Origin: Actinomyces sp. ICM47
Lineage (GTDB): Bacteria; Actinomycetota; Actinomycetes; Actinomycetales; Actinomycetaceae
NCBI RefSeq assembly: GCF_000278725.1
Contig: NZ_ALCA01000093.1
Coordinates: 1 to 21,234, forward strand
Direction: 5' to 3'
DNA: 21,234 nt
Shown piece by piece: positions 5,843 to 21,202 of this stretch (positions are counted from its first letter, which is position 1; every line of letters begins with the position of its first letter). Made by a program: the position numbers and the translations under genes. The notes under the pieces were generated by a model. The model made no database searches, was not told where the DNA came from, and was given only the letters and a program-made list of their open reading frames with translations.

Positions 5843-6743
5843 GCTTTCCGTCATTCTGCCCGCGCGTAACGCTGCGGGCACGATTGCGCGCGCCGTGGCT
5901 TCGACCCTGGCGGCCATGCCGACGGACTCGGAGTTGGTCGTCGGCAATGATTCGTCGTCGGATTCGACGGTCGGCGAAGCCATCCGCGGCGCGTCGCGCG
6001 GGGGAGTGGTCGATCCTCGCCTGCGTATCGAAGACATTACCCCGGGTGAGGGCGGCGTCTCGCGCGTCCTCACTCAGCTGATGGAGCGCACCGATTCGCG
6101 CCTGGTTGGCCGCATGGACGCCGATGATGTCTCCCTGAAGGGGCGCTTCAAGCGCACGATGCACGCCATTGAACGTGGCGATGACATGGTCTTCACGCAG
6201 ATGATCGAATTGCGCGGCTCTCGTCCGGTGCCGCGCATGCCCTATGAGATCACGCCCGAGGATATGGGCTGGCATCTGCTGCTCACCAACCCTGTGTGCC
6301 ACCCGACCATGCTGGCGACGCGCGAGATCATTGACCGTGTCGGCGGTTACCGCGCTGTTCCCGCTGAAGACTATGACCTGTGGATGCGCGTTGCGTCCGC
6401 GGGTGGTCGTATTCGTCGCCTGGCCGCCTGGGGCTTGCTGTATCGGATCCACCCCGGGCAGGTGACGGGAAATAAGGCGTGGCGCTCGGACTCGTGGAAG
6501 AATCCGGATCAGGCCCAGGCTTTCGCCGAGCTGTCGGCGCATCTGACGGGCCAGGAGCTGCCGCGCCTCGTCTCCCTCGTTTCTCTTCCTCGTGACAAGG
6601 CCGAGCGTGAGCTTGAGCGCTTCGTGCAGGTCTACACTCAGGGGGTTGCATCTCGACCCGCAACGTCCCGCCGCGTCCTCGAACGTCGGCTGAATGCGCG
6701 CGCCGCGTGGGTGCGCTCGAACCTTCAAGGAGAACACTCATGA
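5835..6743 (+). CDS. GT2-family glycosyltransferase
   Basis: The 302-residue protein is a GT-A-fold inverting glycosyltransferase (family 2), which moves a sugar from a nucleotide sugar to a growing glycan on the inner membrane face. The N-terminus SVILPARNAAGTI (5-17) and GNDSSSDST (37-45) form the nucleotide-binding part. The metal-binding DxD is within RMDADDVS (D95, D97, D98). EDYDLW (178-183) is the catalytic-base region, followed by YRIHPGQ (203-209). I chose GTG at 5835 because AGGGGG lies about 7 bases upstream and the GT2 fold begins at once. The frame stays open upstream to 5604, but that part is the shadow of the previous gene. It overlaps the preceding gene by 8 bp and the next by 4 bp. 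The sugar specificity is unknown. Confidence 0.9.
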   Translation: MPELSVILPARNAAGTIARAVASTLAAMPTDSELVVGNDSSSDSTVGEAIRGASRGGVVDPRLRIEDITPGEGGVSRVLTQLMERTDSRLVGRMDADDVSLKGRFKRTMHAIERGDDMVFTQMIELRGSRPVPRMPYEITPEDMGWHLLLTNPVCHPTMLATREIIDRVGGYRAVPAEDYDLWMRVASAGGRIRRLAAWGLLYRIHPGQVTGNKAWRSDSWKNPDQAQAFAELSAHLTGQELPRLVSLVSLPRDKAERELERFVQVYTQGVASRPATSRRVLERRLNARAAWVRSNLQGEHS

Positions 6744-8128
6744 TCCTCACCCCTCCGCCGACTGGCGGCCAGCAGATCCTGCGTCACGCCCTGGGGCGTC
6801 GCTGGAGGACGATCGCTGCGGGGACTGTGTTTGGCATGCTTCTTGGTGTTGGCGCCGCCTTCGTGATACCTGTCACGCATTCCGCGACGGTGTCGATGAC
6901 TGTGACGTCGCCGACGCTCACGCCTGCGCCCGCGATTCGTGCGTCGCTGTCGAACACGACGGACATGGTGACTGAGCAGGGAATCGCGAAGTCCGCCGCC
7001 GTCCTGGACGCCGCGGCCGCGACCATCGGCGGCGGGGCGACCGCTGACGAGCTGCGCGAGAACATGGAGGTGTCGGGCGACACGAATGGCACGATCGTCA
7101 AGATCGAGTACTCCGCGCCTACCCGCGCCGAGGCCGTCAAGGCCGCTGACGCGATCTCGGACGCCTATCTCAAGGAACGTACGGCCCTCGTCGAGCAGCG
7201 CGCGAACGAGATGGCCTCCGCCGTGAACGAGCAGATTGCCACCTTGGAGGCCGAACTCAAAAGCCTGAACCCCGTCGTGGATGAGGACGGCGACGTCGTG
7301 AGCACTAACCCGCGCGCCAAGGAGCTGACCGAAGACATCAACAAGCTGAAGGAACAGGCCGCGACGCTGGAGCCCTACCACGCCACCGCCGGCCTCGTCA
7401 TCACGAGTGGCGATGCTTCGACTGACACGGTTGAGCCCGCGAAGTCCCGCCTGATCCTCATTTTCACGGTCGTCGGTCTGTTCGCTGGCCTGGTGCTGAT
7501 GCTTCTGCGTGAGACGCGCGCTCGTACCCTCGATTCGCCCACGCAGCTGGCTGACTTGACGGCTCTGCCCGTGTGGAGCGCCGAGGAAGGCGCGCCCGAA
7601 CCGTGGCTTGCTCCCACCCGTATGCTCGCGATGGCGATTGATCGCGACCACTGGGTCGACCTCATTACTGACGCCTCCGACGCGGAGTCCCGTCAGCTGC
7701 ACCGCGTCCTGTCGCGTTCGCTCGCCGAGACTCGTGTGCCGACGCCTCGCCTGATCGACATCTACCAGCCCCTGGCCTCCCTGCTTGACGAGGTCCGTCC
7801 TTCCCGCCACGTGCTCATCGCCGTGCGTAAGGGCCACGACCTCAAGGAGCTGCACGCCCTCCTCAACGAGCTGGCCATCATCAACCGCGAGGTGAACGGC
7901 ATGCTCTACCTGGATGGCACGGTGACGGCCGGGGCCGAGGACCTGGCTGAGCCTGCGCCCGTCGCTCAGGTGATCGAACCCACGGACGAGGTCGTGGCGG
8001 ACCCGTCCCCGGAGGAGACGGCTATCCTGCGCAAGGTAGAAGTCAGCTCCGAGCCGACCCCCAAGAAGACGTCGGACAACAAGGCGTCCAAGAAGAACGA
8101 CTCCACCGATTCGAAGGATAAGAAATGA
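6740..8128 (+). CDS. Wzz-like polysaccharide chain-length / co-polymerase protein
   Basis: The 462-residue protein has the polysaccharide co-polymerase layout: a membrane segment at about 24-45, an exported region with helical, coiled-coil-like stretches (about 125-215), and a second membrane segment at about 237-256. Such proteins set glycan chain length with the Wzy polymerase. The cytoplasmic C-terminus (about 257-462) is long but shows no Walker A P-loop and no Tyr-rich tail, so it is not a functional BY-kinase by these marks. It ends in a Lys/Asp/Ser-rich tail. The ATG at 6740 has AAGGAG 7 bases upstream and overlaps the previous stop as ATGA; an upstream ATG at 6707 is inside the preceding gene and less likely. 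The gene lies between two glycosyltransferase genes, two genes before the polymerase. Confidence 0.82.
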   Translation: MILTPPPTGGQQILRHALGRRWRTIAAGTVFGMLLGVGAAFVIPVTHSATVSMTVTSPTLTPAPAIRASLSNTTDMVTEQGIAKSAAVLDAAAATIGGGATADELRENMEVSGDTNGTIVKIEYSAPTRAEAVKAADAISDAYLKERTALVEQRANEMASAVNEQIATLEAELKSLNPVVDEDGDVVSTNPRAKELTEDINKLKEQAATLEPYHATAGLVITSGDASTDTVEPAKSRLILIFTVVGLFAGLVLMLLRETRARTLDSPTQLADLTALPVWSAEEGAPEPWLAPTRMLAMAIDRDHWVDLITDASDAESRQLHRVLSRSLAETRVPTPRLIDIYQPLASLLDEVRPSRHVLIAVRKGHDLKELHALLNELAIINREVNGMLYLDGTVTAGAEDLAEPAPVAQVIEPTDEVVADPSPEETAILRKVEVSSEPTPKKTSDNKASKKNDSTDSKDKK

Positions 8129-9462
8129 GTGCCGAGGAGACCCTGGTGGTCGACGATCAGGCAGCGTCCATCTGGCACGTTGACCGCACCGCCCGCGTCA
8201 CCCAGCTGATTTCGGGTGACCCGAAGGACCCCCGCGCGCTCGTTCTCGTGCGCGACAATGGGCGTAACTCCGACTTCATTGAGATCGAGGGGACGGCTCA
8301 CCCCGAGTACTCGGCGCGCGTCGCCGCAGTCGAAGCTGCGTCCCCGCGCGGATGGGAAGAAGGTGCCGGCGCGAAGGTCGACGCCACGGTCATCATGTGC
8401 ACGGTCGGCTCCTGCGACATGCTCGAGGCTGCGGTGCGCGCGATTCTGGCCCAAAAGCATCATCGCTTCACCCTGGTCGTCGTGGATAACGCCCCCGAGA
8501 CCGGCCAGACACGCGAGAAGCTCGCGAGTATCGACGACACACGCATGACCATCGTGTCCGCCTCGCGTCCCGGCCTGTCGCGCGCCCGCAACCGCGGCGT
8601 GCTGGCCGCCCGCGGCGAGGTCATCGTCTTCACCGACGACGACGCGATCGTCGACCCCAACTGGCTGACCGCGATGATCGACCCCTTCACGGCATCGCCG
8701 TACGTAGCTGCCACCACCGGCATCGCCCTGCCGCTGGAGGAACGCTACAAGCCTCAGCGCTGGTTCGAATCGCGCGGTGGCTTCCCCAAGGACATGAAGC
8801 CCCGCGTGTGGTGCGCGGGCGACATGCCCGAGGGCCTGGAGGTGCTGGGTGAAAAGGGTGAAGGAGGCCCGCTCTTCCCGATCACGACGGCTCGCGTGGG
8901 GGCCGGCGTCTGCATGGCCATGCGTCGCGACGTCCTCATGGAGGTCGGCCCCTTCGACCCCGCGCTCGGCGCTGGCACCTCGACGCGAGGCGGCGAGGAC
9001 CTCGACATGTTCGCGCGCATCTTGGCCACAGGCGACGTCATCATCCACACGCCTGACGCTCTCGTGCACCATCGTCACCGCGTCGACGAGGCCGGCCTGG
9101 ATAAGCAGATTCGCGGCAACGGCTCCGGCATGGCCGCTCTGCTGACGAAGGCCATCATCGAGAAGCCCTCGGTCCTGTGCACCCTCGTGGGACGCATTCC
9201 CGGAATCCTTAAGCGCATCAAGCCCGGCGGTGCCCGCGTGGCCGGCCGTGATGACGATACGCCCGGTTCGCTCACCAGGTCCGAAATCAAGGGCTTCCTG
9301 GAGGGCCCCTTCCTCTACCTGTCTTCGCGCAAGCGCAACAGGCTCGCCCCGCTCCACCCGGCTGACGAGCCGGCGGCCGACGCGACCGCGCAGAACAACG
9401 CTGACGCAGCCCCGGCCTCGTCCGAGGAACGTGGCACTCCTGAAGGGAACACGAGCGCGTGA
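8125..9462 (+). CDS. GT2-family glycosyltransferase with N-terminal extension
   Basis: The 445-residue protein has a GT-A-type domain from about 85 to 345. Marks are ATVIMCTVGSCDMLEAAV (about 87-104), VVVDNAPE (118-125), RPGLSRARNRGV (148-159), the DxD-type DDD at 171-173 in VFTDDDAIVDPNW, and GGEDLDMF (289-296) with the likely catalytic acidic residues. The first 80 or so residues form an extra domain I do not recognise. The last 70 are charged and Ala/Pro-rich, probably disordered. The ATG overlaps the previous stop by 4 bp and has AAGGATAAGAA upstream. It probably adds one sugar of the polysaccharide repeat unit at the inner membrane face; specificity is unknown. Confidence 0.88.
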   Translation: MSAEETLVVDDQAASIWHVDRTARVTQLISGDPKDPRALVLVRDNGRNSDFIEIEGTAHPEYSARVAAVEAASPRGWEEGAGAKVDATVIMCTVGSCDMLEAAVRAILAQKHHRFTLVVVDNAPETGQTREKLASIDDTRMTIVSASRPGLSRARNRGVLAARGEVIVFTDDDAIVDPNWLTAMIDPFTASPYVAATTGIALPLEERYKPQRWFESRGGFPKDMKPRVWCAGDMPEGLEVLGEKGEGGPLFPITTARVGAGVCMAMRRDVLMEVGPFDPALGAGTSTRGGEDLDMFARILATGDVIIHTPDALVHHRHRVDEAGLDKQIRGNGSGMAALLTKAIIEKPSVLCTLVGRIPGILKRIKPGGARVAGRDDDTPGSLTRSEIKGFLEGPFLYLSSRKRNRLAPLHPADEPAADATAQNNADAAPASSEERGTPEGNTSA

Positions 9463-10973
9463 GTTGGGGCCGCGGAATCTGGAGGAAGCCGCCACCGGCG
9501 CGCATCGGGCCGCTGCGGGAGGACGCGCAGGACCTGCCGGCGTGGCCCTTCGTCGCGGCCTACTCGATGTACCTGCTGTGGTGGGTCCTGGGCTCCGGCG
9601 ACCTGATGTGGCCGTTCTTCGGGATCATCATGCTCGTGCTGATGCTTGGCCGAAGCGGTCTGCGTTTCCCGCCCGGAACGATCATCTGGATGTTTTTCCT
9701 GGCGTGGGTGTTGGCGTCTATGTCGATGCTCGACTCGGGCGGGCGCGTCATTGGCGCGTTCTACCGCTTCCTGCTCCAGCTCGCTCCCGGTATCTTCGCG
9801 GTCTACGCGTACAACGCGCGTAAGACGCTGAGCGTGCGCGTCATCGTGGGCACGATGTGGGGTTTTCTCCTGTCGACCACGATTGGTGGCTTCATCGCCA
9901 TGGCGTGGCCCGAGCTGCGCTTCAAGACGCTCATGTACTACCTGGTGCCGAAGCCCCTGCATGCCAACGACTTCGTCAAGGAGTTCACGAAGCGCGCCAC
10001 TACCCAGTGGAACCCGTCGTCGTGGATTCTGTCCGACCCGCGTCCCTCCGCGCCGTTCATCTACGCGAATACGTACGGCAACGTGTACTCGATGATCTTC
10101 CCGCTCGCGCTGATTTTTGCGTACGTGCTGTGGCGCGAGCGCTCGACATATCGTTTCATCGTTGTTGGCGTGTGCGCGCTGTCGATCATCCCGGCGGCAG
10201 CAACGCTCAACCGCGGCATGTATATCGGCCTCATCGTCATCGTGACGTGGGTCGGTTTCCAGCGCCTGCGCGCCGGGGCGTGGCGCACCGTTGTGGGCAT
10301 CATTGGGGCCCTCGTCGTCGCTGTGGTGGCCTGGCTATCCACGCCCGCCTCGAAGTCCCTGTTCGACCGTCTCCAGGAATCCTCCTCAACCGCGGACCGT
10401 GCGTCGAACTACCTGGAGACCCTCGACGAGCTTGCTGAATCGCCGTTCCTGGGATTTGGTGCTCCTCGCCCCTCGGCGTCGTCCTGGCTGCCAGCCTTGG
10501 GCACCCAGGGCCAGTTCTGGACCGTCATCTTCTCCTACGGCCTCGTCGGCATTTTCCTGTTCATCCTGTTCTTCCTGCGCATGTTCCCGCGCATCTGGCG
10601 GGCCAAGGATGTCTACGGTTCGATCCTGGGCGGCATCATGCTGGCCACCCTGGTCGAGCAGTTCTACTACGGCATGAACACGGGCCTGATGCTCTCGGTC
10701 GTCGCTGCCGCCTTGCTGTCGCGTCACCTGGAAGAAGAGAACGACCCGCTGCGCGTGGCCGCCGTACAAGCCGGTACACCCACGCCCGGTTCCGTTGCTG
10801 GTACGGTCCGCGCCGCGGCTCCCGTGCGTCTGGGCGAATGGGGAAGCCCCGCCGCGAACGACGGGGCTTTCTCCACTCGGATGCTCGAACGACTCAACAG
10901 GTCGGGTCGTCGGGGAAGGAGACACCGGAGAGCTTCCAGTTCTGACCATCCTTCACAAACTGAAAGTATGTGA
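9459..10973 (+). CDS. Wzy / O-antigen-ligase-like polysaccharide polymerase
   Basis: The 504-residue protein has about 12 hydrophobic segments (from about residue 30 to 421) with two longer exported loops at about 150-204 and 295-355. The second loop contains RLQESSSTADRASNYLETL followed by ESPFLGFG (about 305-334), the pattern typical of O-antigen ligase/Wzy proteins. These enzymes join lipid-linked repeat units, or transfer glycan, on the outer membrane face. The GTG start overlaps the previous stop by 4 bp. The tail after about 425 is hydrophilic and very Arg/Ser-rich. Its last 80 bp overlap the opposite-strand gene at 10894-11538, and its coding sequence runs through the hairpin at 10844-10869. 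The true C-terminus may therefore differ. Confidence 0.82.
   Translation: MSWGRGIWRKPPPARIGPLREDAQDLPAWPFVAAYSMYLLWWVLGSGDLMWPFFGIIMLVLMLGRSGLRFPPGTIIWMFFLAWVLASMSMLDSGGRVIGAFYRFLLQLAPGIFAVYAYNARKTLSVRVIVGTMWGFLLSTTIGGFIAMAWPELRFKTLMYYLVPKPLHANDFVKEFTKRATTQWNPSSWILSDPRPSAPFIYANTYGNVYSMIFPLALIFAYVLWRERSTYRFIVVGVCALSIIPAAATLNRGMYIGLIVIVTWVGFQRLRAGAWRTVVGIIGALVVAVVAWLSTPASKSLFDRLQESSSTADRASNYLETLDELAESPFLGFGAPRPSASSWLPALGTQGQFWTVIFSYGLVGIFLFILFFLRMFPRIWRAKDVYGSILGGIMLATLVEQFYYGMNTGLMLSVVAAALLSRHLEEENDPLRVAAVQAGTPTPGSVAGTVRAAAPVRLGEWGSPAANDGAFSTRMLERLNRSGRRGRRHRRASSSDHPSQTESM
10844..10869 (+). terminator. Terminator-like hairpin inside the polymerase 3' end
   Basis: AAGCCCCG (10844-10851) pairs exactly with CGGGGCTT (10862-10869) around a 10-nt loop, followed on the plus strand by TCTCC, giving a short TTTCT run. 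It sits between the two convergent genes as a transcription terminator would. It is 25 bp past the minus gene's stop, but about 100 bp before the polymerase stop codon. Confidence 0.6.
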
Positions 10974-11538
10974 GGGCGCGGGTCATGGTCGTGTCGTCCG
11001 TCAAAGACGTCCCCGCGTCGTTGAGGATGCGCACGGAGGAGGAGTCCACACAGGCCGACACGGTGAGGTTTCCGGCACCGTCATCGGCGATGACCTGCGG
11101 GTTTTCGACAGTTGGCGTGCCCTCGGAGTGCAGGCCTTCCTTCGCCCATTCGACAGCCTGCGCATCGAATTCTTCGAGCGCGGACTCGGTGAGCACGGAA
11201 GACAGGTCGGTCGCCTGGGCCTGCTCGGGATCGGTGTACGCGTCGTACAGGGTTGTCAGGATGTACGAGGCCTGGTCGCCAGCCTCGGTGGCCGTCTCCA
11301 TCGCGCCGTTTGCGTTGGCGGGACCCGCCGACTGCGGCGTGATGGTCTTGGCGATGGATTGCGGGGCGTCGGATTGGCCGGGACCCACGCTCTGCACGCC
11401 GGAGGCTGCGGTGGTCTCAGTGTCGGAAGAACCCGTCAGGCGCAGTACCACGACGATGACGAGCGCGATGACCAGGAGGATCGCTGCTGCCACGAGGCCC
11501 TTCTTGCGGGTGGGGGAGAGAGAGTTGATGAAGTTCAT
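10894..11538 (-). CDS. Membrane-anchored NTF2-like protein, unknown role
   Basis: The 214-residue protein has a short basic N-terminus (SPTRKKG), one membrane segment at about 14-33, a Thr/Ser/Gly/Pro-rich linker to about 85, and an exported domain at about 86-212. That domain has the helix-then-strands pattern of NTF2/SnoaL-like actinobacterial surface proteins (YILTTLYDAYTDPEQA; ALTYFQFVKDGQNWKLSGVSF). It contains only two cysteines, C163 and the last residue C214, which could form a disulfide outside the cell. It is the only minus-strand gene in the polysaccharide region, lies between polymerase and flippase, and overlaps the polymerase gene end by 80 bp. A TATAAC -10-like box precedes it. 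No enzymatic motif is visible; a structural or regulatory role at the envelope is only a guess. Confidence 0.75.
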   Translation of the reverse strand: MNFINSLSPTRKKGLVAAAILLVIALVIVVVLRLTGSSDTETTAASGVQSVGPGQSDAPQSIAKTITPQSAGPANANGAMETATEAGDQASYILTTLYDAYTDPEQAQATDLSSVLTESALEEFDAQAVEWAKEGLHSEGTPTVENPQVIADDGAGNLTVSACVDSSSVRILNDAGTSLTDDTTMTRALTYFQFVKDGQNWKLSGVSFPDDPTC

Positions 11539-11561: not shown

Positions 11562-11597
11562 GGGAAAGGCTACCGCGTGGTAGCGGGAAGGTTAATC

Positions 11598-13085
11598 ATG
11601 AGTGAGGCAAATCAAGCCAGGCGGTCCCTCGCTCGCGGGGGCATCGTCGGGTTCGTCGGAGCCATGGCCTCGGCCATCCTGGGTTTCGCTTTCACGATCA
11701 TTCTCTCGCGCATGTTGGGCGCGACCGGCGCGGGCGTCGTCACGCAGGCGACGGGCGTGTTCGCCATCGTCATGGCCTTGGCGAAGGTTGGCCTGGACTC
11801 CACGGCCATCTACCTGATGCCTCGCCTGTCCCTGGATGCGCCCCAGGAGATCCGCGCAACCCTGTCGTTTATGGCGACGATGACGGTGGGCGTGTCCACC
11901 GTGTGCGTCCTCGTTCTCGAGGCCGTGGCCCCGTTGATCTGGAATGCTGAGGTGTCGGGTGCGACCCGCGCTGTCCTCTGGTTCGTCCCGATCGGTGCAC
12001 TCACGCTCGTGGCGTCCGCCGCGCTGCGGGCGCTGGGTAACATGCGTGAGTACGTGCTCGTCCAGAACCTGCTGCTGCCGGGCCTGCGTCCCCTTCTGGT
12101 GGCCCTGGCGGCCGCGCTGACGGGTTCTCTGGCGCTCGTCTCAGTCGCGTGGGCCCTGCCCTTCGTCGTGGTGCTGGTGGCATCTTGGTGGCTGTTGCTG
12201 CGGCACATGCCGTCGGTGGCGGACTCTGAGGGGCGCTGGCCGAGTGTGCAGCGTCGTCGTCAGGTCGTCTCCTTCGCGCTGCCTCGCACCCTGACTGCCG
12301 GTCTCGAGCAGGCCCTGCAGTGGCTGGACGTCCTGCTGGTCGGCCTGCTCGCGGGCGATGCTGCCTCGGGTATCTACGGCGGTGCGATCCGTTTCATTCA
12401 GGCGGGCATGGTCGTCGATACGGCCCTGCGCGTCGTCGTCTCTCCGCAGTTCTCCAAGCTCCTGCACCAGGAGCGCATCAAGGAGCTGCGCGACCTCTAC
12501 GGCACGGCCTCTATCTGGCTGGTGCTTTTCGCCGCGCCGATCTACGCGCTCATGGCGATCTACGCTCCGGCTCTCATGAGGATCCTCGGTGATGGTTTCG
12601 CGCCGGGCGCGAACGTGCTCGTTGTCCTGTGCATCGGCTCTATCGTGACCTTCATGGCGGGCAACATTCACTCGCTGCTCATCATGAGTGGGCGCTCTGG
12701 GTGGGCGGCCGTGAACAAGGTTGTGGTGCTGACGCTGAACGTTGTGGGCAACGTCATTTTCATTCCTCGTGGAGGTATGGTCGCAGCTGCGGCGGTTTGG
12801 GCGTTTTGCATGGTGCTTGACGCTGTGATGGCGACCGTTCAGGTGTCGCGCTTCATCGGTGTGACACCGAAAATCTCTGAAGTGGTCAAGCCGATCCTTG
12901 TTGTGGGCGCATCTGCCGCAATTCCTGGTGGTTGTATAGCATGGTTGTGCGGGCGCGATTCTTTCGTCGGGATGGTCGCTGGGTCGGCCCTCTCGGTCCT
13001 CGTTTTCGCTTGTGTTTGTTGGGCTTTTCGGGATCGGCTCCATCTCTCGGGACTTGGGTCCTTGGCAAAGAAAAAACGGGGGTAA
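11598..13085 (+). CDS. Wzx-like polysaccharide flippase (MOP superfamily)
   Basis: The 495-residue polytopic membrane protein has about 12-14 hydrophobic segments. Its N-terminus, LARGGIVGFVGAMASAILGF then SRMLGATGAGVV, matches the opening helices of Wzx/MurJ/MATE-like exporters. Such proteins flip polyprenyl-linked repeat units across the membrane. The Lys-rich end (LAKKKRG) is cytoplasmic by the positive-inside rule. The ATG at 11598 has GGAAGG six bases upstream; an in-frame GTG at 11577 has no such site. It follows the minus-strand gene, so it must be transcribed from a promoter in 11539-11597 or by read-through. It supplies the flippase matching the polymerase and chain-length protein upstream. 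Confidence 0.88.
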   Translation: MSEANQARRSLARGGIVGFVGAMASAILGFAFTIILSRMLGATGAGVVTQATGVFAIVMALAKVGLDSTAIYLMPRLSLDAPQEIRATLSFMATMTVGVSTVCVLVLEAVAPLIWNAEVSGATRAVLWFVPIGALTLVASAALRALGNMREYVLVQNLLLPGLRPLLVALAAALTGSLALVSVAWALPFVVVLVASWWLLLRHMPSVADSEGRWPSVQRRRQVVSFALPRTLTAGLEQALQWLDVLLVGLLAGDAASGIYGGAIRFIQAGMVVDTALRVVVSPQFSKLLHQERIKELRDLYGTASIWLVLFAAPIYALMAIYAPALMRILGDGFAPGANVLVVLCIGSIVTFMAGNIHSLLIMSGRSGWAAVNKVVVLTLNVVGNVIFIPRGGMVAAAAVWAFCMVLDAVMATVQVSRFIGVTPKISEVVKPILVVGASAAIPGGCIAWLCGRDSFVGMVAGSALSVLVFACVCWAFRDRLHLSGLGSLAKKKRG

Positions 13086-13201: not shown

Positions 13202-16200
13202 ATGGCTTCCGCACTTTCGCGCCTTGTAACCCTTGCATCTGCACCGATTATCGCGTGTGCATCGCTTGCGTTCGCCCCGATGGCGCACGCAGATGATGGC
13301 AATCCACCTCCCGTTTCTCCTGGTCAAACCGTCCTTCATGACGGTTTGAGCGCCGCCACCGCGGCGGCCTCGTGCTGGGACATCAAGCAGCGCGATCCCA
13401 ACTCTCAGGACGGCACCTACTGGCTCCAGACCCCCGCGATGGACGCCCCCGCTCAGTTCTTCTGTGATCAGACCACAGATGGCGGCGGCTGGGTCATGAT
13501 CGGTCGTGGCCGCGAAGGCTGGGAGCCGTGGAGTGGCGGCAAGGGCGATCCGGCCAAGCTCGCAACGCGCGAGCGTAACCAGTCGGCCTTCGACGTCGTT
13601 CAGCTCTCCAACGACGCTGTCAACGGCCTGCTCAACAATGAGGACGTCAAGGACCAGCCGGACGGCGTGCGCGTCCTGCGCTCGTGGAGCGCCTCGGGCC
13701 GCTCCTACCAGAAGCTGGACATGAAGTTCTCCAAGATGACGGACTTCGTGTGGCCCTTCAAGATGGCTCACCCGGTGAGCATCTCGATGGACGGTGCCAG
13801 CCCCGTCTCCGGCCTCCTGTGGAATACCCTCGGCTACGACCAGGGGTGGAACGCCCTCCAGGTCTACCCGTCGGCGCGCACCGGCTGGACTGTCGGCTGG
13901 GGATACGGCATCGGTGCCGGAAACTGGGGTGGCGACCTGAGTTCTGCGTCTTCCTTCTTCCACAAGAACGGCCAGACGGTCTTCGCCTACTCTGAGGCCT
14001 ACGTGCGTCCGCGCGTTGCCTCCGACTCCTCGGCCTTCACCCGCATCCCGGACGAGGGCGAGGCTGGTTCCACCGTGAGCCGCGCCGTCTCCAACTACGC
14101 GGCCACAACCTCGTGGGGCGTCACCGGTAACATCAACGGCTCCTACGCGGAAGGATCCATTCAAGTCCAGGCCCTCAAGCAGGTCGGCTCCACCATGTAC
14201 GTGGGTGGTAACTTCACCGGCGTCAAGCAGGGCGAGAACGGTTCCGAGAACCCGTCGCGCGGCCTGGCGGCCTTCGACGTCAACACCGGCGACTGGACCG
14301 GCCAGGCCTTCGACTTCAACAATCAGGTCAAGGCCCTCCTGCCGCTGCCCGATGGTCGCCTCCTCGTGGCCGGCGACTTCACGCGCGTCAACGGCGAGAC
14401 TCACATCGGCACCGTCGTCATCAACCCCTCCACCGGCCAGATCGACCCCTCGTGGGACCTGTCGATCACTAACGCGCTGAACGGCGGCCAGGTGAGCGTG
14501 CGCGCGCTCGACTACTACGACGGCAACGTCTACCTGGGCGGTGTCTTCACGCACCTGAGTGGCGGCGGCTCCTCAAAGGTCTACGGGCGCAACGCTGCCC
14601 GCGTGTCCCTCGACGGGCGCCCCGACCGCAGCTGGAACCCGGAACTCAGCGGCTCCGTTCAGGCCGTGGGCGTCAGCGAGGCTAACGGTGCCTTCTACGC
14701 CGGCGGACACTTCACCCGTGCACACGGCTCCGAGCGTGCATGGTACGCGGCGAAGTTCTCGACCCAGCCCGGTGCCGCCCAGGACTTCGAATTCAATTTC
14801 GAACCTTCCACCGTGAGCGCCGGCAAGTACCAGCAGACCATCGCCACCGGCGGTAACCGCGTCTTCATCGGCGGCTCCGAGCACTCCCTGTTCGGCTACG
14901 ACACCGGCACGAACTCGCGCACCTCCGGCACCGTCACCATGAGCATGGGCGGCGACATGCAGGCCAGCACCATCTCCTCCAAGAACGTCATTTACGGCTC
15001 CTGCCACTGCTCTGACGGGGCCTACCAGGACAAGTACGACTGGGCCGTGTCCGACCGCTGGTCTCGTATCGACGAGATCAAGTGGGTGGGTGCGTGGGAC
15101 GCCACCACTGGTGAAAACCTGCACTGGACCCCCTTCGAGCTCTCCTCCAAGCGCAAGACCGGTGCGTGGGCGCTCACGACCGATACCAACGGCAACCTGT
15201 GGGTTGGCGGCGACTTCGACCTGTCGCATATCGACGCTTCGCGGACTCAGTGGAACGGTGGCTTCGCCCGCTACGATAACCGCGACAATGTAGCCCCCGA
15301 GACCCCGACGCTGGTGCGTACGACCGCTTCCACGGCCTCGTCCGTCACCCTGGCCTGGGAAGGCGTTTCCGACGCCGTCTCCTACGAGATCCTGCGCGAC
15401 GATCGCCCGATCGCCTCCACGACCTCGGCCAGTGTTGAGGTCCCGCGCGGCGGCGACAACCGCTTCTTCGTGCGCGCCGTTGACGCTGCGGGCAACCGCT
15501 CCGCCACCACCGCCGTCTACGTGCCCCCGGCCGACGGCGAGGTCGATCCCGCCAACCCCGTTCTGCTGGAAACTGGTGCCACCTGGAGCTACCGCGCACT
15601 CAACAGCGCCGCCCCCGAGAACTGGACACAGACCTCGTTCGACGACTCCCAGTGGTCCACCGGTACCGCCCCGCTCGGCTACGGCGACCCGAGCATCGCG
15701 ACCGTCCTGCAGTCGAACATCGCGCGCCCCGTGACCTCCTACTTCCGCTCGCACTTCACGGTCGCCGACGCCAAGGCGCTCAAGGGTGTCACCGTGAAGT
15801 ACCTGGCTGATGACGGTGCCGTGGTCTACGTCAATGGCACCGAGGTCGACCGTACACGCATCGACGCAGGTGCCGTGAGCTACACGACGCGAGCCAACGC
15901 CGCACCGAGCTACAGCGCGGCCTCGAACTCCCTGTCCGAGGTCTTCGTACCGGCCTCACTGCTCACCACCGGCGACAACGTCATCGCAGTCGAAACGCAC
16001 GTGAACTACACGCGCAGTGCGACCGTGGGCATGTGGGCCTCCGTGACCCGCGTCGACGGAACACCCGATTCGGCTTCCGGGGACGACGATGTGAAGCCGC
16101 AGCCACAGCCCGCACCCGAGCCGGACCCGGTTCCCCACACTGAACCCTCAGCGCCCGCAAACCTTGAGGACGCCACCAAGGCCATCGACGTGAGCGCCAT

Positions 16201-16714
16201 GACGAATGGCGAGATCATCCCTTCGGCTTCCACCCAGTGGAACTACTGGACCGCCATGGCAGCTCCCGCCACTGACTGGGCAACGACCGCATCCCTGGCG
16301 GACTGGTCGCGCGGTGCAGGCCCCATCGGATGGGGAGACTCGGACGCGGTCACTCGCCTGGACATCGCCAAGAAGGATCGCCCTGTCACGTACTACTTCG
16401 CGCGTGACATCGACCTGGGCACCATCACCCCCAATACCAGCCTCACCTTCAAGGTGCGTGCAGACGACGGCGTCGTCCTGCGCATCAACGGACAGGTCGT
16501 GGACACGAAGCGTATGTCGCCTGGCAACATTAGCCACGACACGTACGCGAATGCGGCGGTTACTGCCCCCCAGGCGGCCTCCGATCTGCTCGAGGTGAAG
16601 ATTCCTGCCAGCTACTTGACATCTGGGGTGAATCGCATCGGCGTTGAGGAACATATCAACTACAAGGGCACGCCGTCCATGTCCTTTGATTTGTCCGCAA
16701 CAATGGCCAAATAG
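13202..16714 (+). CDS. Large secreted fibrinogen-like / beta-propeller / FN3 protein (paralog 1)
   Basis: This 1170-residue exported protein has a Sec signal peptide (1-30, cleaved after AHA). A fibrinogen-like domain at about 44-272 carries FFCDQTTDGGGWVMIGRGREGW, the bacterial CDxxTxGGGW signature. A repeat region at about 300-693 has YVGGNFTGV, LLVAGDFTRVNGETHIGTV, YLGGVFTHL and FYAGGHFTRAHG, blades of a DUF5122/delta-60-like beta-propeller. FN3 lies at about 699-780. Two related galactose-binding-like beta-sandwiches follow (about 785-955 and 997-1170; WSYRAL/WNYWTA, then DDGAVVYVNG and DDGVVLRING), split by a Pro/Glu-rich linker. The mature protein has four cysteines: C58, C88, C601 and C603. 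There is no LPXTG signal or C-terminal anchor. GAAAGG lies 7 bases before the ATG. It probably binds glycans or host ligands at the surface; this is inference from domains and position. Confidence 0.9.
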   Translation: MASALSRLVTLASAPIIACASLAFAPMAHADDGNPPPVSPGQTVLHDGLSAATAAASCWDIKQRDPNSQDGTYWLQTPAMDAPAQFFCDQTTDGGGWVMIGRGREGWEPWSGGKGDPAKLATRERNQSAFDVVQLSNDAVNGLLNNEDVKDQPDGVRVLRSWSASGRSYQKLDMKFSKMTDFVWPFKMAHPVSISMDGASPVSGLLWNTLGYDQGWNALQVYPSARTGWTVGWGYGIGAGNWGGDLSSASSFFHKNGQTVFAYSEAYVRPRVASDSSAFTRIPDEGEAGSTVSRAVSNYAATTSWGVTGNINGSYAEGSIQVQALKQVGSTMYVGGNFTGVKQGENGSENPSRGLAAFDVNTGDWTGQAFDFNNQVKALLPLPDGRLLVAGDFTRVNGETHIGTVVINPSTGQIDPSWDLSITNALNGGQVSVRALDYYDGNVYLGGVFTHLSGGGSSKVYGRNAARVSLDGRPDRSWNPELSGSVQAVGVSEANGAFYAGGHFTRAHGSERAWYAAKFSTQPGAAQDFEFNFEPSTVSAGKYQQTIATGGNRVFIGGSEHSLFGYDTGTNSRTSGTVTMSMGGDMQASTISSKNVIYGSCHCSDGAYQDKYDWAVSDRWSRIDEIKWVGAWDATTGENLHWTPFELSSKRKTGAWALTTDTNGNLWVGGDFDLSHIDASRTQWNGGFARYDNRDNVAPETPTLVRTTASTASSVTLAWEGVSDAVSYEILRDDRPIASTTSASVEVPRGGDNRFFVRAVDAAGNRSATTAVYVPPADGEVDPANPVLLETGATWSYRALNSAAPENWTQTSFDDSQWSTGTAPLGYGDPSIATVLQSNIARPVTSYFRSHFTVADAKALKGVTVKYLADDGAVVYVNGTEVDRTRIDAGAVSYTTRANAAPSYSAASNSLSEVFVPASLLTTGDNVIAVETHVNYTRSATVGMWASVTRVDGTPDSASGDDDVKPQPQPAPEPDPVPHTEPSAPANLEDATKAIDVSAMTNGEIIPSASTQWNYWTAMAAPATDWATTASLADWSRGAGPIGWGDSDAVTRLDIAKKDRPVTYYFARDIDLGTITPNTSLTFKVRADDGVVLRINGQVVDTKRMSPGNISHDTYANAAVTAPQAASDLLEVKIPASYLTSGVNRIGVEEHINYKGTPSMSFDLSATMAK

Positions 16715-16804
16715 AGCGAACGTCGTGTCGCTTCATGCAGGTTGAGGTGATGTCGTGACTAGTTTGAGTAGTTTGACCTACCTCATATATTCCTGTTGAC
16801 AGGG

Positions 16805-16833
16805 GGAGCCCTCGCCGTTCTGGCGAGGGCTCC
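16805..16833 (+). terminator. Strong intrinsic terminator after paralog 1
   Basis: GGAGCCCTCGCC (16805-16816) pairs perfectly with GGCGAGGGCTCC (16822-16833) around a 5-nt loop, followed by TTCGTAT. It lies 90 bp after the stop and separates the two paralogous genes into independent transcripts. Confidence 0.85.
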
Positions 16834-16876
16834 TTCGTATGTGGTAGAACACTCTCGTTTTTGGCTAACCACATGG

Positions 16877-16905
16877 TTGAGCGTGATGGGTTTTCGTGAC
16901 ACTAT
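16877..16905 (+). promoter_or_regulatory. Possible promoter of the second fibrinogen-like gene
   Basis: TTGAGC (16877-16882) and CACTAT (16900-16905) are separated by 17 bp. This mirrors the TTGACT-17-GACTAT arrangement upstream of paralog 1. Transcription would begin near 16912, within or beside the shared 16-bp motif. Confidence 0.45.
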
Positions 16906-16909
16906 AGGG

Positions 16910-16925
16910 GTAACCATTAATGCGA
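16910..16925 (+). promoter_or_regulatory. Motif shared by the two fibrinogen-like genes (copy 2)
   Basis: GTAACCATTAATGCGA lies 16 bases before the ATG at 16942 and matches 13155-13170 at 13 of 16 positions. It starts 4 bases after the proposed -10 here, against 10 bases in copy 1, so the position relative to the promoter is not strictly fixed. Confidence 0.4.
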
Positions 16926-16941
16926 TACCAGTGAGGATCCG

Positions 16942-19900
16942 ATGAAGACTATCCGCCGCTGCTTGGCCCTCGGCCTAGCATCAATAACCGGTTTCGGAGT
17001 GCTTGCACTCAGCCCCGTCGCAGCTCAGGCGGCGGTTGACCCCCTCCACGATGGCCTCTCCGAAGCAACTGCTGCGGCCTCATGCTGGGAGATTAAACAG
17101 AACAACCCACGCTCGTCGGACGGCACCTACTGGCTCCAGACGGCCACAATGGATGCCCCCGGCCAGTTCTTCTGCGACCAGACGACGGATGGCGGCGGCT
17201 GGGTCATGATCGGTCGCGGCCGTGAAGGCTGGGAAACCTGGAGCCAGGGCAATGGCGACCAGACTCGCCTCCAGACCCGCCCGCGCACTCCCGGCGACTT
17301 CGAGGTCGTCCAGGCGTCCCACGAGACCGTCAACGGACTGCTCGGAGGCACCAAAGTTTCTGACCTCCCGGACGGAGTCATGGTCCAGCGTGCCTGGAAC
17401 CACCGAGGCAGCGCCTACCAGACCGTGCGCATGCAGTTCCCCAAGATGCGTGACTTCATCTGGCCCTTCAAGAGCGCCCACCCCGTCAACGTCAAGTTCA
17501 ACCGCGAGTGGTGGGTCAACGGCGGCATCGTGTGGTCAGGCTTCGGCACGAACACCAGCTGGGGCTACGTCAACCTGAACGCTTCTCCTCAGAACCAGTA
17601 CACGATGGGCTTCGGCTATGGTCCCCTCGCGTCCTCCTGGTACGACACCTCCTCCTCGACGTCGTTCTTCCACCGCAACGGCTCCATCATCAATCCCTAC
17701 GCGGAGGTTTACATCCGTCCCGAGCTGAGCTCCACGGACTCCTCTTTCCGCGCCATCGGTGACGGCGGCACTGCCGCAGAGACCCAGAAGGCATCGGTCT
17801 CCGAATATGCGACCCCCACGACGTGGGGCGTGACCGGTAACCTCAACGGCTCCATCCAAGAGGGAAGCATTCAGGTCCAGGCCTTCGAACAGGTCGGCTC
17901 GACCATGTACGTCGGCGGTAACTTCACCGGCGTGCAGAAGGGCAAGAACGGCTCGGAGACCACCAGCCGTGGCCTGGCAGCCTTCGATGCCACCACCGGT
18001 GACTGGAACGGTCAGACCTTCGACTTCAACAACCAGGTGAAGGACCTCGTCGAGCTGCCCGGCGGTAAGCTGCTGGCAGTCGGTGACTTCACCAAGGTCA
18101 ACGGTGAAACCCACGTCGGAACCGTCCTGATCGACGCTGCCACCGGCCAGATTGATCCCTCGTGGGACCTGCAGATCCGCAACGGCAACGCGTCCGTCGT
18201 GACCGTTAAGGCTGCAAAGGTCATCGGCCAGCATATCTACCTGGGCGGCGCGTTCACGCACCTGACGGGTAACGGCTCCTCCTCCGTGTACGCCCGCAAC
18301 GGTGCCCGCCTGGACCTGTCCGGCAAGCCTGACCGCTCCTGGAACCCCGAGTTCAACGGCAGTGTCATCGACATCGACGTGGACGAGAACGACTCCTATT
18401 ACTACGCCGCGGGCCACTTCACTCGTGCACACGACCTCGTTGCCGAAAATGCTGCCCGTCTGGGCACCGGGGCCGGAGCCGATCTCGACCAGTCCTGGTC
18501 CTTCCGCCACTCCTACTTCATCGGCAAGTACCAGCAGGCTGTCACCGTCGGTAATGGGCGTGTCTACTTCGGTGGCTCCCAGCACTCGCTGTTCGGCTAC
18601 AACACCTCCGACATGACCCGTACCTCCGGTTCCATCACCATGCAGAACGGCGGCGACCTGCAGGCGACCACTGCCTCTGCGACCGGCGTCGTCTACGGCT
18701 CCTGCCACTGCTCCGACTACGCTTTCCAGGACGCCTACCAGTACCTCGCCCTCGGCGACACATGGACGCGCGCCGACGAGATCCAGTGGGTCGGCGGATG
18801 GGACCAGGCCACCGGTCGCCAGATCGGCTGGACGCCCTACCGTCTGTCCTCTCTGCGCTCCACTGGTGCCTGGGCCCTCGAAATGGGTGATGACGGAGCC
18901 CTGTGGGCCGGCGGTGACTTCAACTTCTCCTACACTTCCAAGACGGCCGGCCAGTGGTCCGGCGGCTGGGTGCGCATGCCCGCACGCAGCGCCACCGCCC
19001 CCGCCGTGCCCGCCAATCTGCGCGCCTCCGACGGCAACGCGAAGGAAGTAACCCTCAAGTGGTCGTCCGTGCCCGGTGCCGAGTCCTACGACATCCTGCG
19101 CGATGATCGCACAATCGCCACCACGACCTCGACCTCCATCACCGTGCCCCTGGGAGGCAATAACCGCTTCTTCGTGCGCGCCGTCGCCTCCGACGGCCTG
19201 CGAGGTGCCTCGACCCACGCCTACACAGTCGACGCCAACGGCCAGCCGACCCAGCCCGACGACTCGACCATCCTCGTTGAGGACGACGCCACCTGGGCGT
19301 ACCACTGGTCGACCGACGCCGTGCCCGCAGACTGGGCCCAGACCTCGTACGACGACTCCTCGTGGAGCCGCGGCACCGCACCCATCGGCTACGGCGCAGC
19401 CGACCTGGGCACCACGCTCAAGCCCGGCACACCCAAGACCCGCCCGCTGACCACCTACGCGCGCACCACCTTCACTGTCGCTGACCCCACTGCCATCGGC
19501 GGCGTGAACGTTGCGGTGACGGCCGACGACGGTGCCGTGGTCTACGTCAACGGCACCGTGATCGTACGCCAGCGCATGAACGATGGTGCCGTCACCGCCG
19601 GAACCTACGCGTCCGCCTCCGTGACGACCGCCTCCGCGCGCGCCGACCGTCAGCTGGTCTTCGTCCCCGCGTCCCAGCTCGTCGCTGGAACCAACACCCT
19701 GGCCGTCGAGACACACCTCAACTACCGGTCCAGCTCCTCGATGACCATCGACGGCACCGTCCAGGTCGTGGCAAAGGCTGATGTGCCCGAACCCGAGCCG
19801 CAGCCCGAACCCGAGCCGGAACCCGCGCCGCAGCCCGACCCGGACAAGCCAATCACCCCGGATCCCGATCAGCCCCTCGAGGTACTCGACGTATCCGGCG

Positions 19901-20412
19901 TGAACTTCGGTGAGTTCCTGCCCACCGGACAGTACTGGAACTACTGGAACTCCAAGGACGCTCCCGACGCCGCGTGGAACTCTACTGCCGACCTGTCAAA
20001 GTGGAAGCACGGAGCCAGCCCGCTGGGCTGGGGCGACCGCGACGCCGCTACCCCCTTCGTGCTCGCCGCCTCCGAGCGACCCATCACAACCTACTTCGCC
20101 CGTGACGTGAACCTGGGCACCATCAGCGCTGACTTCGAGCTTACCCTCGACGTTCGCGTCGACGACGGCGCCGTCATCTACGTCAACGGAACCGAAGTAA
20201 AGCGCGTGAACATGCCGGAAGGTACCGTCACGAACAACACCAACGCCAAGTCCAACGTGTCCCTCGGCGCAGCCAAGAAGAATCTTGCCACGGTGTCCGT
20301 CCCGCGTGATGTTCTCAAGGACGGTGTTAACCGCATCGCGGTCGAAGAGCACGCCAACTACGCTGGTGCCGTCTCAGTTTCCTTCGACCTGAAGGCAAGC
20401 CTGCTAAGGTAG
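16942..20412 (+). CDS. Large secreted fibrinogen-like / beta-propeller / FN3 protein (paralog 2)
   Basis: This 1156-residue exported protein is a tandem paralog of the preceding one, with the same domain order. The signal peptide is 1-30 (cleaved after AQA). The fibrinogen-like domain is at about 34-258 with FFCDQTTDGGGWVMIGRGREGW, and the propeller-like region at about 285-680. FN3 is at about 687-770, and the galactose-binding-like modules at about 777-945 and 985-1156, split by a Pro/Glu repeat linker (about 950-979). C48, C78, C588 and C590 match the four cysteines of paralog 1. No sorting signal is present. GAGGA lies 4 bases before the ATG. The most divergent part is the middle of the fibrinogen-like domain (about 180-250), where ligand contacts lie in animal fibrinogen-related domains. 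The next gene, a GT26 enzyme, begins 4 bp after the stop, so they are probably co-transcribed. Confidence 0.9.
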   Translation: MKTIRRCLALGLASITGFGVLALSPVAAQAAVDPLHDGLSEATAAASCWEIKQNNPRSSDGTYWLQTATMDAPGQFFCDQTTDGGGWVMIGRGREGWETWSQGNGDQTRLQTRPRTPGDFEVVQASHETVNGLLGGTKVSDLPDGVMVQRAWNHRGSAYQTVRMQFPKMRDFIWPFKSAHPVNVKFNREWWVNGGIVWSGFGTNTSWGYVNLNASPQNQYTMGFGYGPLASSWYDTSSSTSFFHRNGSIINPYAEVYIRPELSSTDSSFRAIGDGGTAAETQKASVSEYATPTTWGVTGNLNGSIQEGSIQVQAFEQVGSTMYVGGNFTGVQKGKNGSETTSRGLAAFDATTGDWNGQTFDFNNQVKDLVELPGGKLLAVGDFTKVNGETHVGTVLIDAATGQIDPSWDLQIRNGNASVVTVKAAKVIGQHIYLGGAFTHLTGNGSSSVYARNGARLDLSGKPDRSWNPEFNGSVIDIDVDENDSYYYAAGHFTRAHDLVAENAARLGTGAGADLDQSWSFRHSYFIGKYQQAVTVGNGRVYFGGSQHSLFGYNTSDMTRTSGSITMQNGGDLQATTASATGVVYGSCHCSDYAFQDAYQYLALGDTWTRADEIQWVGGWDQATGRQIGWTPYRLSSLRSTGAWALEMGDDGALWAGGDFNFSYTSKTAGQWSGGWVRMPARSATAPAVPANLRASDGNAKEVTLKWSSVPGAESYDILRDDRTIATTTSTSITVPLGGNNRFFVRAVASDGLRGASTHAYTVDANGQPTQPDDSTILVEDDATWAYHWSTDAVPADWAQTSYDDSSWSRGTAPIGYGAADLGTTLKPGTPKTRPLTTYARTTFTVADPTAIGGVNVAVTADDGAVVYVNGTVIVRQRMNDGAVTAGTYASASVTTASARADRQLVFVPASQLVAGTNTLAVETHLNYRSSSSMTIDGTVQVVAKADVPEPEPQPEPEPEPAPQPDPDKPITPDPDQPLEVLDVSGVNFGEFLPTGQYWNYWNSKDAPDAAWNSTADLSKWKHGASPLGWGDRDAATPFVLAASERPITTYFARDVNLGTISADFELTLDVRVDDGAVIYVNGTEVKRVNMPEGTVTNNTNAKSNVSLGAAKKNLATVSVPRDVLKDGVNRIAVEEHANYAGAVSVSFDLKASLLR

Positions 20413-20416
20413 GACT

Positions 20417-21202
20417 ATGACTGACAAGTCGCTCGTCGCTGGCGGTCTCGACACGAACGAGGCCGCCAGCGCGGTCGGTGCCAACACGTCCGACCCTGCT
20501 TTCATTGCTATGGCCCAGCGCGTGCTCAGCCGTGGGCACGCGACCACCTGGCTCAATCACTGGTCCCTGCTACACGCCGACTTCCGCGCGCTCGCGCGCA
20601 TGGACACTGTCGGCTTCGATGGGACCCTCCTGCAAATGCGTTTGCGCGGTGCCGGGCACGAGATCGAACGCACCTCCGCCGACCTTGTTCTGCCCCACGT
20701 CTTTTCCCGCCTCGATGATGGAACCCGCATCACTCTGATCGGTGCCGTTCCTGAGGCCGGGCGTGCTGCAGCTGAGCGCCTCAGTCGCTTTGACGTCCAG
20801 GTTATCGATGGATACGACGGCCTCCGCCGCTTCAAGGTGAACCCGAGTTTGCTCTCGTCTTTCGATCCTCGTCTGGTAATTGTCGGACTCGGAGCTGGTC
20901 TGCAGGAAGTCGTCGCTTCCGTCGCGCGGGACCTCGTTCCCCAGGCGTCTGTGTGTACTGCTGGCGGCTGGATCGACCAGTATGCAAAGGCAGCCGATGA
21001 CTACTTCCCCGACTGGGTCCACAACGCTCGCCTGGGCTGGGCGTGGCGCATCGCGCACGAACCCAAGCGCCTGACGAAGCGCTACACGGTGGAGGCTCTG
21101 GACTTCATTGCTCACTGGCCTGAGCTGATTCGTCGCCTTGAGGCCATGGGTACCTTCGACGAGCTGGGCCTCGTCGTGGAGAAGAACGCGTCGCAGGCGT
21201 GA
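20417..21202 (+). CDS. WecG/TagA/CpsF-family (GT26) glycosyltransferase
   Basis: The 261-residue protein matches the GT26 family, whose members include TagA and WecG, N-acetylmannosamine(-uronate) transferases acting on lipid-linked glycans. Visible marks are LNHWSLLHA (46-54), MDTVGFDGTLLQ (62-73) with the DG pair at 68-69, a Rossmann-like GAVPEAG (109-115), and GYDGL (132-136). VIVGLGAGLQE (154-164) and TAGGWIDQYA (181-190) follow, then the C-terminal PDWVHNARLGWAWRIAHEPKRLTKRY (198-223), the typical membrane-associating TagA tail. The start codon is 4 bp after the preceding stop, with AAGG and AGGA overlapping that stop. Its place next to a secreted protein and a Wzx/Wzy cluster suggests it adds a sugar to the same polysaccharide. 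The sugar donor is unknown. Confidence 0.88.
   Translation: MTDKSLVAGGLDTNEAASAVGANTSDPAFIAMAQRVLSRGHATTWLNHWSLLHADFRALARMDTVGFDGTLLQMRLRGAGHEIERTSADLVLPHVFSRLDDGTRITLIGAVPEAGRAAAERLSRFDVQVIDGYDGLRRFKVNPSLLSSFDPRLVIVGLGAGLQEVVASVARDLVPQASVCTAGGWIDQYAKAADDYFPDWVHNARLGWAWRIAHEPKRLTKRYTVEALDFIAHWPELIRRLEAMGTFDELGLVVEKNASQA

What the first reader, a model, noticed from the sequence alone, without database searches (positions are those of the whole stretch)
13202..20412. Tandem giant fibrinogen-like mosaic proteins inside a polysaccharide locus
Two secreted paralogs combine a fibrinogen-like GGGW domain, a beta-propeller-like region, FN3 and two galactose-binding-like modules, and lack any wall anchor. 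They sit between the flippase and a GT26 glycosyltransferase. Fibrinogen-related domains often recognise sugars or acetyl groups. The pair may be lectin-like proteins held on the polysaccharide made next door, a potential new surface or adhesion system.
Basis: partly seen in the sequence, partly recalled or inferred. Interest (0 to 1): 0.8.

Follow-up and report, generated by a model that had tools for sequence, protein, structure and literature searches.

The report
Giant secreted partners of one polysaccharide
Two very large secreted proteins of a Schaalia/Actinomyces-like bacterium belong to a family that mostly travels with one type of surface-polysaccharide export machinery in actinobacteria, so they are probably dedicated protein partners of that sugar polymer, which a direct binding test could settle.

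Summary
In detail: 13202-16714 and 16942-20412 encode 51%-identical secreted paralogues (GGGW fibrinogen-like domain, propeller, FN3, two galactose-binding-like modules, no LPXTG) between wzx and a WecG/TagA/CpsF gene.

The locus link is general. In the family sample 23 of 200 genomes hold a full relative, the same 23 hold this Wzx, all 23 in this locus. In the order sample 27 of 347 hold the core, and all 27 hold the Wzx type; of the 22 not already counted, 17 have both on one stretch, 4 do not, 1 is cut off.

FReD-propeller-FN3 is fixed and predicted as one rigid body; the C-terminus varies. The lectin argument is weak: similarity to lectins covers only ~50 residues. The densest invariant polar residues (H561, D585, Q587, C601-H602-C603) lie in the propeller, though FReD has some too.

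Best reading: dedicated polysaccharide-binding matrix proteins, working like Vibrio Bap1/RbmC but of different architecture. Binding is inferred, not shown.

The parts
13202..16714 (+). FIB1, 1170 aa secreted FReD-propeller-FN3-GBD-GBD protein
13202..13291 (+). FIB1 Sec-type signal peptide (cleavage after A30 judged by eye)
13340..14056 (+). FIB1 GGGW fibrinogen-like domain (residues 47-285)
   Evidence: NF040941 72.1 bits vs cut-off 30; blocks of the core model mostly over pLDDT 90
14096..15283 (+). FIB1 beta-propeller, seven GGxF-type blade motifs (residues 299-694)
14882..15010 (+). Stretch holding the invariant propeller residues H561, D585, Q587, C601-H602-C603
   Evidence: 100% in 77 of 77 rows of A3; CHC in 62 of 64 core sequences
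15290..15535 (+). FIB1 FN3 domain (697-778)
15554..16051 (+). FIB1 galactose-binding-like module 1
16199..16708 (+). FIB1 galactose-binding-like module 2
16802..16836 (+). Conserved hairpin between FIB1 and FIB2, terminator- or attenuator-like
   Evidence: -32.7 kcal/mol, z -5.8; such a hairpin in 11 of 14 tandem loci folded; 10 of 16 pairs with compensatory change in 10 aligned sequences
16942..20412 (+). FIB2, 1156 aa paralogue, same domain order
17050..17766 (+). FIB2 GGGW fibrinogen-like domain
   Evidence: NF040941 70.5 bits
17806..18987 (+). FIB2 beta-propeller with CHC at 18703-18711
   Evidence: alignment with FIB1
18991..19236 (+). FIB2 FN3 domain
   Evidence: alignment
19264..19761 (+). 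FIB2 galactose-binding-like module 1
   Evidence: alignment
19897..20409 (+). FIB2 galactose-binding-like module 2
   Evidence: alignment
20417..21202 (+). WecG/TagA/CpsF glycosyltransferase, 4 bases after FIB2
11577..13085 (+). Wzx-type flippase, the gene that tracks FIB
10894..11538 (-). w10, small membrane-anchored extracytoplasmic protein; several relatives look like lipoproteins (by eye)
9459..10973 (+). Wzy/O-antigen-ligase-like polymerase
   Evidence: PF04932 E 1.4e-7, just over cut-off
8125..9462 (+). GT2 glycosyltransferase
6707..8128 (+). Wzz-like chain-length protein (sub-threshold Pfam)
5826..6743 (+). GT2 glycosyltransferase
5072..5842 (+). CDP-alcohol phosphotransferase
   Evidence: PF01066 E 7.4e-10
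4578..5075 (+). Cytidylyltransferase-like enzyme; solved relatives include ethanolamine-P and glycerol-3-P cytidylyltransferases

Best explanation
FIB1 and FIB2 are secreted, non-anchored proteins dedicated to the one Wzx/Wzy polymer made by this locus, perhaps a phospho-alcohol-decorated polysaccharide. After Sec export the rigid FReD-propeller-FN3 core binds that polymer at the cell surface, and the exchangeable C-terminal modules (here two galactose-binding-like jelly rolls) bind a second partner: another stretch of polymer, the wall, or a foreign surface. The protein thus cross-links or decorates the polymer layer, in the way Vibrio Bap1/RbmC act as double-sided tape. Shown: architecture, signal peptide, co-occurrence and co-localisation with the Wzx pathway, fixed core versus variable C-terminus, invariant residues. 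Inferred: polymer binding, surface retention, cross-linking, the phospho-alcohol.
For: The same 23 of 200 genomes of the family sample hold a full FIB and Wzx, all 23 with FIB between wzx and wecG (in G184 wecG lies after copy one of three). In 347 order genomes 27 hold the core and all 27 the Wzx type, which 10 of the 320 others hold. Gene order differs from the family sample but both are on one stretch in 17 of 22 further genomes. The GGGW domain over cut-off occurs in these 27 genomes and in no other of the 347. Core fixed, C-terminus exchanged, including SLH (P0137) and CWB2 (P0219) modules (the 8 proteins were picked for their listed domains). Rigid confident core model. FIB2 stop and wecG start 4 bases apart.
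Against: No binding or localisation data. In four order-sample genomes FIB lies on stretches without a hit to the locus HMMs (G231, whole contig from base 2000; G339, 17 kb; G246 and G287, 12-kb contigs only); their Wzx lies elsewhere and those Wzx stretches lack w5 and w10, so the polymer may differ. One phylum-sample genome has a propeller-FN3 relative without FReD outside a recognised locus (L120). A pure scaffold need not keep an invariant H/D/Q/CHC set. Shared ancestry inflates all co-occurrence figures, some family-sample genomes were the seeds of the search, and profile A5 was built from Wzx proteins next to FIB.
Confidence: 0.5

Rival explanations
1. FIB is an extracytoplasmic enzyme of the pathway: the propeller site around H561 and C601-H602-C603 modifies, trims or transfers the polymer after Wzx export, and the other domains hold it on its substrate.
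For: H561, D585, Q587, C601, H602 and C603 are invariant in 77 of 77 rows. By blade register EH and CHC replace the ordinary GGxFT motif in two neighbouring blades. Biosynthetic genes flank it, and the strongest matches to the Wzx profile are all in FIB genomes (profile biased).
Against: No enzyme family is detected in the propeller. CHC is absent from L108 and from L119, the latter in a polysaccharide locus by my reading. FReD has invariant polar residues too. Tandem paralogues and a changing C-terminus look more like a matrix protein. A CxC pair may be a structural disulphide.
Confidence: 0.2
2. Lectin-like adhesin: the fibrinogen and galactose-binding modules recognise foreign glycans (host mucin, other oral bacteria, Saccharibacteria) and the proteins sit on the polysaccharide.
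For: The GGGW subdomain is homologous to intelectins (profile E 1.5e-9); FReD keeps invariant residues; the GBD profile reaches glycan-acting proteins; a relative is in a Saccharibacteria basibiont, ORNL0103 (L002; PMC8567789 seen only as a search listing with abstract start).
Against: Sequence similarity stops before the sugar-pocket half of lectins. The FReD beyond its first part is less conserved (mean 0.55 vs 0.72). The family also occurs in genera such as Kineosporia, Arthrobacter and Nocardioides, which are not oral (recalled), so no oral role explains it as a whole.
Confidence: 0.2
3. Passenger: FIB is a secreted protein of unrelated function that happens to share a conserved chromosomal block.
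For: Vertical descent could keep a block together; four unlinked cases exist.
Against: The neighbourhood persists with different gene orders, and the four unlinked genomes still hold the Wzx type.
Confidence: 0.1

Closest known systems
Vibrio cholerae Bap1/RbmC (VPS-binding biofilm adhesins)
   Same: Secreted paralogous proteins with a conserved beta-propeller plus non-conserved partner-binding domains; rbm genes lie in the vps intergenic region (PMC8295476, PMC10102183, passages read).
   Different: Bap1 has an eight-bladed propeller with a beta-prism insert; here seven blade motifs, an N-terminal FReD, FN3 and GBDs. bap1 itself lies away from the vps genes (recalled). No direct sequence comparison was made. 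Polymer binding is shown there, not here.
Intelectins (X-type lectins) and fibrinogen-related lectins
   Same: GGGW N-terminal subdomain, profile E 1.5e-9 to XEEL.
   Different: Match limited to ~50 residues; no propeller, FN3 or GBD in those lectins (recalled); pocket half not matched by sequence.
NCBIfam NF040941 'fibrinogen-like YCDxxxxGGGW domain' proteins
   Same: The pair are members by score; in the order sample the domain over cut-off marks the same 27 genomes (34 of its 36 matches lie in the cores, 2 in short frames).
   Different: The model names a 46-residue domain only; it says nothing of the fixed core or of the polysaccharide link.
Vibrio RbmA
   Same: Matrix protein that binds VPS through FnIII domains (PMC10102183, passage).
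   Different: Here FN3 is one small domain of a large core.
Galactose-binding-like accessory domains of rhamnosidases and PL4 lyases
   Same: GBD profile against 3w5m, E 2.2e-6 whole sequence; 4 of 13 modules match Pfam CBM-like at E 0.01.
   Different: No catalytic domain detected; the single stretches against 3w5m are weak (E 0.13 and 0.56).

Membership tests
NF040941 GGGWT_bact | score over curated cut-off of 30 bits | tested here: met
   72.1 and 70.5 bits
Fibrinogen_C / FReD lectins (PF00147) | whole ~220-residue domain over Pfam gathering score | tested here: not met
   16.6 and 18.1 bits vs 22, profile 12-52 and 5-56 of 221
Fibrinogen_C / FReD lectins (PF00147) | homologous N-terminal subdomain | tested here: met
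   profile A2 vs XEEL E 1.5e-9, intelectin-1 8.3e-8
Fibrinogen_C / FReD lectins (PF00147) | sugar or acetyl pocket in the C-terminal subdomain | tested here: inconclusive
   no sequence alignment beyond the first part; FReD could not be folded and searched alone (prediction cap)
Intelectin (X-type lectin) | calcium-dependent binding of terminal 1,2-diols (recalled) | not testable with these tools
   needs protein
Bap1/RbmC-type matrix adhesin | secreted, propeller-bearing, encoded with the polysaccharide genes | tested here: met
Bap1/RbmC-type matrix adhesin | conserved part plus variable partner-binding domains | tested here: met
   core fixed, C-terminus GBD/LamG/PKD/SLH/CWB2; that they bind partners is not shown
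Bap1/RbmC-type matrix adhesin | eight-bladed propeller | tested here: inconclusive
   seven blade motifs; Foldseek lists both 7- and 8-bladed structures
Bap1/RbmC-type matrix adhesin | propeller binds the cognate polysaccharide | not testable with these tools
   needs EMSA or staining
Sortase- or SLH-anchored surface protein | LPXTG, SLH or CWB2 anchor | tested here: not met
   no LP.T[GA] motif, no anchor Pfam hit in FIB1/FIB2 at E 0.1
Wzx/Wzy-dependent polysaccharide locus | flippase, polymerase, chain-length protein, glycosyltransferases | tested here: met
   Wzz is below Pfam cut-off

The most novel reading that the evidence does not exclude
The FReD-propeller-FN3 core is an unrecognised extracytoplasmic component of an actinobacterial Wzx/Wzy pathway that often also carries a CDP-alcohol phosphotransferase and the small anchored protein w10. 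Its propeller holds a new metal or catalytic site (H561, D585, Q587, C601-H602-C603) that acts on, or captures, the phospho-alcohol-decorated polymer, making FIB an obligate last step in building the surface layer rather than an accessory lectin.
Probability: 0.2. Interest if true: 0.8.

Novelty: new variant of a known kind. Interest (0 to 1): 0.6.

Why it matters
It proposes a function class for a family now named only by a 46-residue domain or as 'galactose oxidase' (names), ties it to one flippase type in two genome samples, and shows that the propeller deserves attention as much as the fibrinogen domain. Relatives are in oral Schaalia, hosts of Saccharibacteria, so this surface layer is of practical interest. 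A transposon library exists for S. odontolytica XH001 (PMC12369343, passages seen), so the prediction can be tested.

Tried and rejected

Considered and rejected: that the tandem pair is a recent duplication (each paralogue forms a clade of 13 rows from the same 12 genomes plus the window; the node joining them has 86/88 support, so the exact root of the duplication is open); that the hairpin between the genes is a known RNA (no Rfam match over gathering score in the window). A draft count of 17 of 20 linked order-sample loci in my notes was miscounted: it is 16 of 20 within the first stretch, plus L105 by its extension L122. On checking I also withdrew the statement that the invariant polar site is only in the propeller, because one search shows invariant polar residues in FReD too; the enzyme rival went from 0.22 to 0.20 and the adhesin rival from 0.18 to 0.20 for that. 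My text pattern for the EH motif missed 4 of 64 cores; three of these four (L044, L094, L101) are rows of A2, where the His column is invariant; the fourth, L055, was not aligned there.

Literature: no paper in the held library for 'YCDxxxxGGGW', for GGGW + fibrinogen-like + Actinomyces, or for Actinomyces + Wzx + exopolysaccharide + fibrinogen; titles and abstract starts listed (10 of 419; 12 of 14) show nothing on this family. Term searches of the main texts of PMC12369343 and PMC10768705 found no 'fibrinogen' or 'polysaccharide'; supplements could not be opened, so essentiality of this locus is unknown to me.
Full report

WHERE IT SITS. Upstream are a cytidylyltransferase-like enzyme, a CDP-alcohol phosphotransferase, two GT2 enzymes, a Wzz-like protein, a Wzy-like polymerase, a reverse-strand small anchored protein (w10) and Wzx; downstream is a WecG/TagA/CpsF enzyme. 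FIB2 and wecG are 4 bases apart; they overlap by 4 bases in three of the four relatives measured and are 6 apart in the fourth. The closest named relatives are Actinomyces bouchesdurhonensis (79% in FIB1) and Schaalia strains (72-74%); the window's own species is not told.

IS THE LINK GENERAL? Family sample (family of G003, 200 genomes, some of them seeds of the search): 27 match FIB1 at E 1e-3; 23 are full relatives and four (G013, G113, G181, G187) are weak partial matches (at most 3 candidates per genome were scored). Wzx at E 1e-60 is found in 23 of the same 200, and these are the same 23 genomes. In all 23 the first FIB follows wzx, and wecG follows the last FIB except in G184, where it follows the first of three. 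Copy number is 2 in 13 genomes, 1 in 9, 3 in 1.

Order sample: 28 of 347 genomes match profile A1 at E 1e-20 (at most 2 candidates per genome scored). NF040941, with all candidates scored, is over cut-off in 27 of the 347, the same genomes without G352, which has only partial matches. Five of the 27 were counted above. The other 22 were not in the family sample; whether some belong to that family is not told. Of the 22, the Wzx gene is on the same stretch in 16 and in G509 after extending the stretch, making 17; G248 is cut off by its contig end (its Wzx is on another contig, beside a CDP-alcohol enzyme); G231, G339, G246 and G287 show no hit to the locus HMMs next to FIB (the last two on 12-kb contigs only; a GalU-like gene is there in L104 and L126 by my reading). 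A Wzx profile finds 37 of 347 genomes at E 1e-60, including all 27; the four unlinked genomes, none of which contributed to the profile, hold it at E 1e-108 or better, against 10 of 320 genomes without the core at E 1e-60, the best of those at 1e-109. Chance figures are very small but ignore common descent, and the profile was built from Wzx proteins beside FIB.

Phylum sample: 5 of 396 at E 1e-40. Of the three new genomes, G727 and the partial match without FReD in G779 lie in loci with Wzx; G627 has one core copy among polysaccharide genes (my reading of the ORFs; of the locus HMMs only WecG scored there) and one propeller-FN3 copy without FReD elsewhere.

Gene order around FIB in the further genomes differs from the family sample, so the neighbourhood is probably kept by more than inertia. 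w10 is found in 18 of 23 stretches of the family sample and in 11 of 17 linked further loci (L105 counted with its extension L122), the CDP-alcohol enzyme in 9 of those 17, and neither in 9 of the 10 Wzx loci from genomes without the core (G352 was not read), nor in the four Wzx stretches of the unlinked genomes (Fisher p 0.002 and 0.009 for 17 versus 9; the HMMs were trained on FIB loci). The polymer may therefore carry a phospho-alcohol; which one is not known.

WHICH PART DOES WHAT? The core is fixed and the C-terminus is not: 0 to 3 GBDs in the loci read, and LamG, PKD, Ig-like, FN3, SLH (P0137, three stretches) or CWB2 (P0219, three stretches) in eight database relatives that I picked for their listed domains. 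This is the logic of Bap1/RbmC, where a conserved propeller binds VPS and other domains bind other surfaces (PMC10102183, PMC8295476, passages read). The fibrinogen domain is a weak basis for a lectin claim: only about 50 residues at its start resemble lectins, and that is also its most conserved part (0.72 against 0.55). Invariant polar residues are densest in one part of the propeller: H561, D585, Q587, C601, H602, C603 in 77 of 77 rows; CHC is in 62 of 64 cores from the loci read, missing in L108 and L119. But FReD has invariant polar residues too (D89, R104, R160, Q170, R269), so a site there is not excluded. That the propeller residues face one another is inferred from blade motif register, not from coordinates.

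HISTORY. In the tree of 64 cores FIB1 and FIB2 each form a strongly supported clade of 13 rows from the same 12 genomes plus the window; the pair in G186 and the three copies in G184 group by genome, so they arose separately; the three copies in G509 do not form one clade, one of them pairing with G253. FIB2 is more conserved than FIB1 in FReD, and the linker is the least conserved part of both.

JUDGEMENT. The mechanism I consider most likely is binding of the cognate polymer by the core, with the C-terminus as second hand (0.5). An enzyme role centred on the propeller site (0.2) and the adhesin reading (0.2) are the main rivals. No tool here can show binding.

Noticed in passing
window 16802-16836: A strong hairpin between FIB1 and FIB2, present in 11 of 14 tandem loci folded (not in L041 and L042, whose gap is 41 bases; a weaker fold in L045), with compensatory changes in 10 of 16 pairs over 10 aligned sequences; it lacks a T run. 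It may end or attenuate transcription so that FIB1 and FIB2-wecG are expressed separately.
   Followed up: partly
L004 and L005: Records titled Sanguibacter keddieii 250_SKED and Xylanimonas cellulosilytica 352_XCEL carry loci nested inside the Schaalia clade; the species labels look wrong.
   Followed up: no
window 10894-11538 (-): w10 is antisense to the operon and overlaps the end of the wzy ORF by 80 bases here, whereas in several distant loci (for example L095, L097, L100, L109) its relative sits on the FIB strand directly before FIB; some relatives look like lipoproteins by eye.
   Followed up: partly
window 1463-2830 (-): A 455 aa protein with a hydrophobic stretch near its start (by eye) and no Pfam or NCBIfam hit, in a stretch of 48-49% GC against 59-68% in the rest of the window; possibly acquired DNA.
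   Followed up: no
L137, L139, L140: Wzx loci from genomes without the FIB core still encode proteins that score against the FIB profile at E 1e-19 to 1e-29, perhaps GBD-bearing secreted proteins.
   Followed up: no
L098:3996-11381: A 2461 aa FIB relative with the usual core, then about 1200 residues of unassigned sequence before two terminal GBDs.
   Followed up: no
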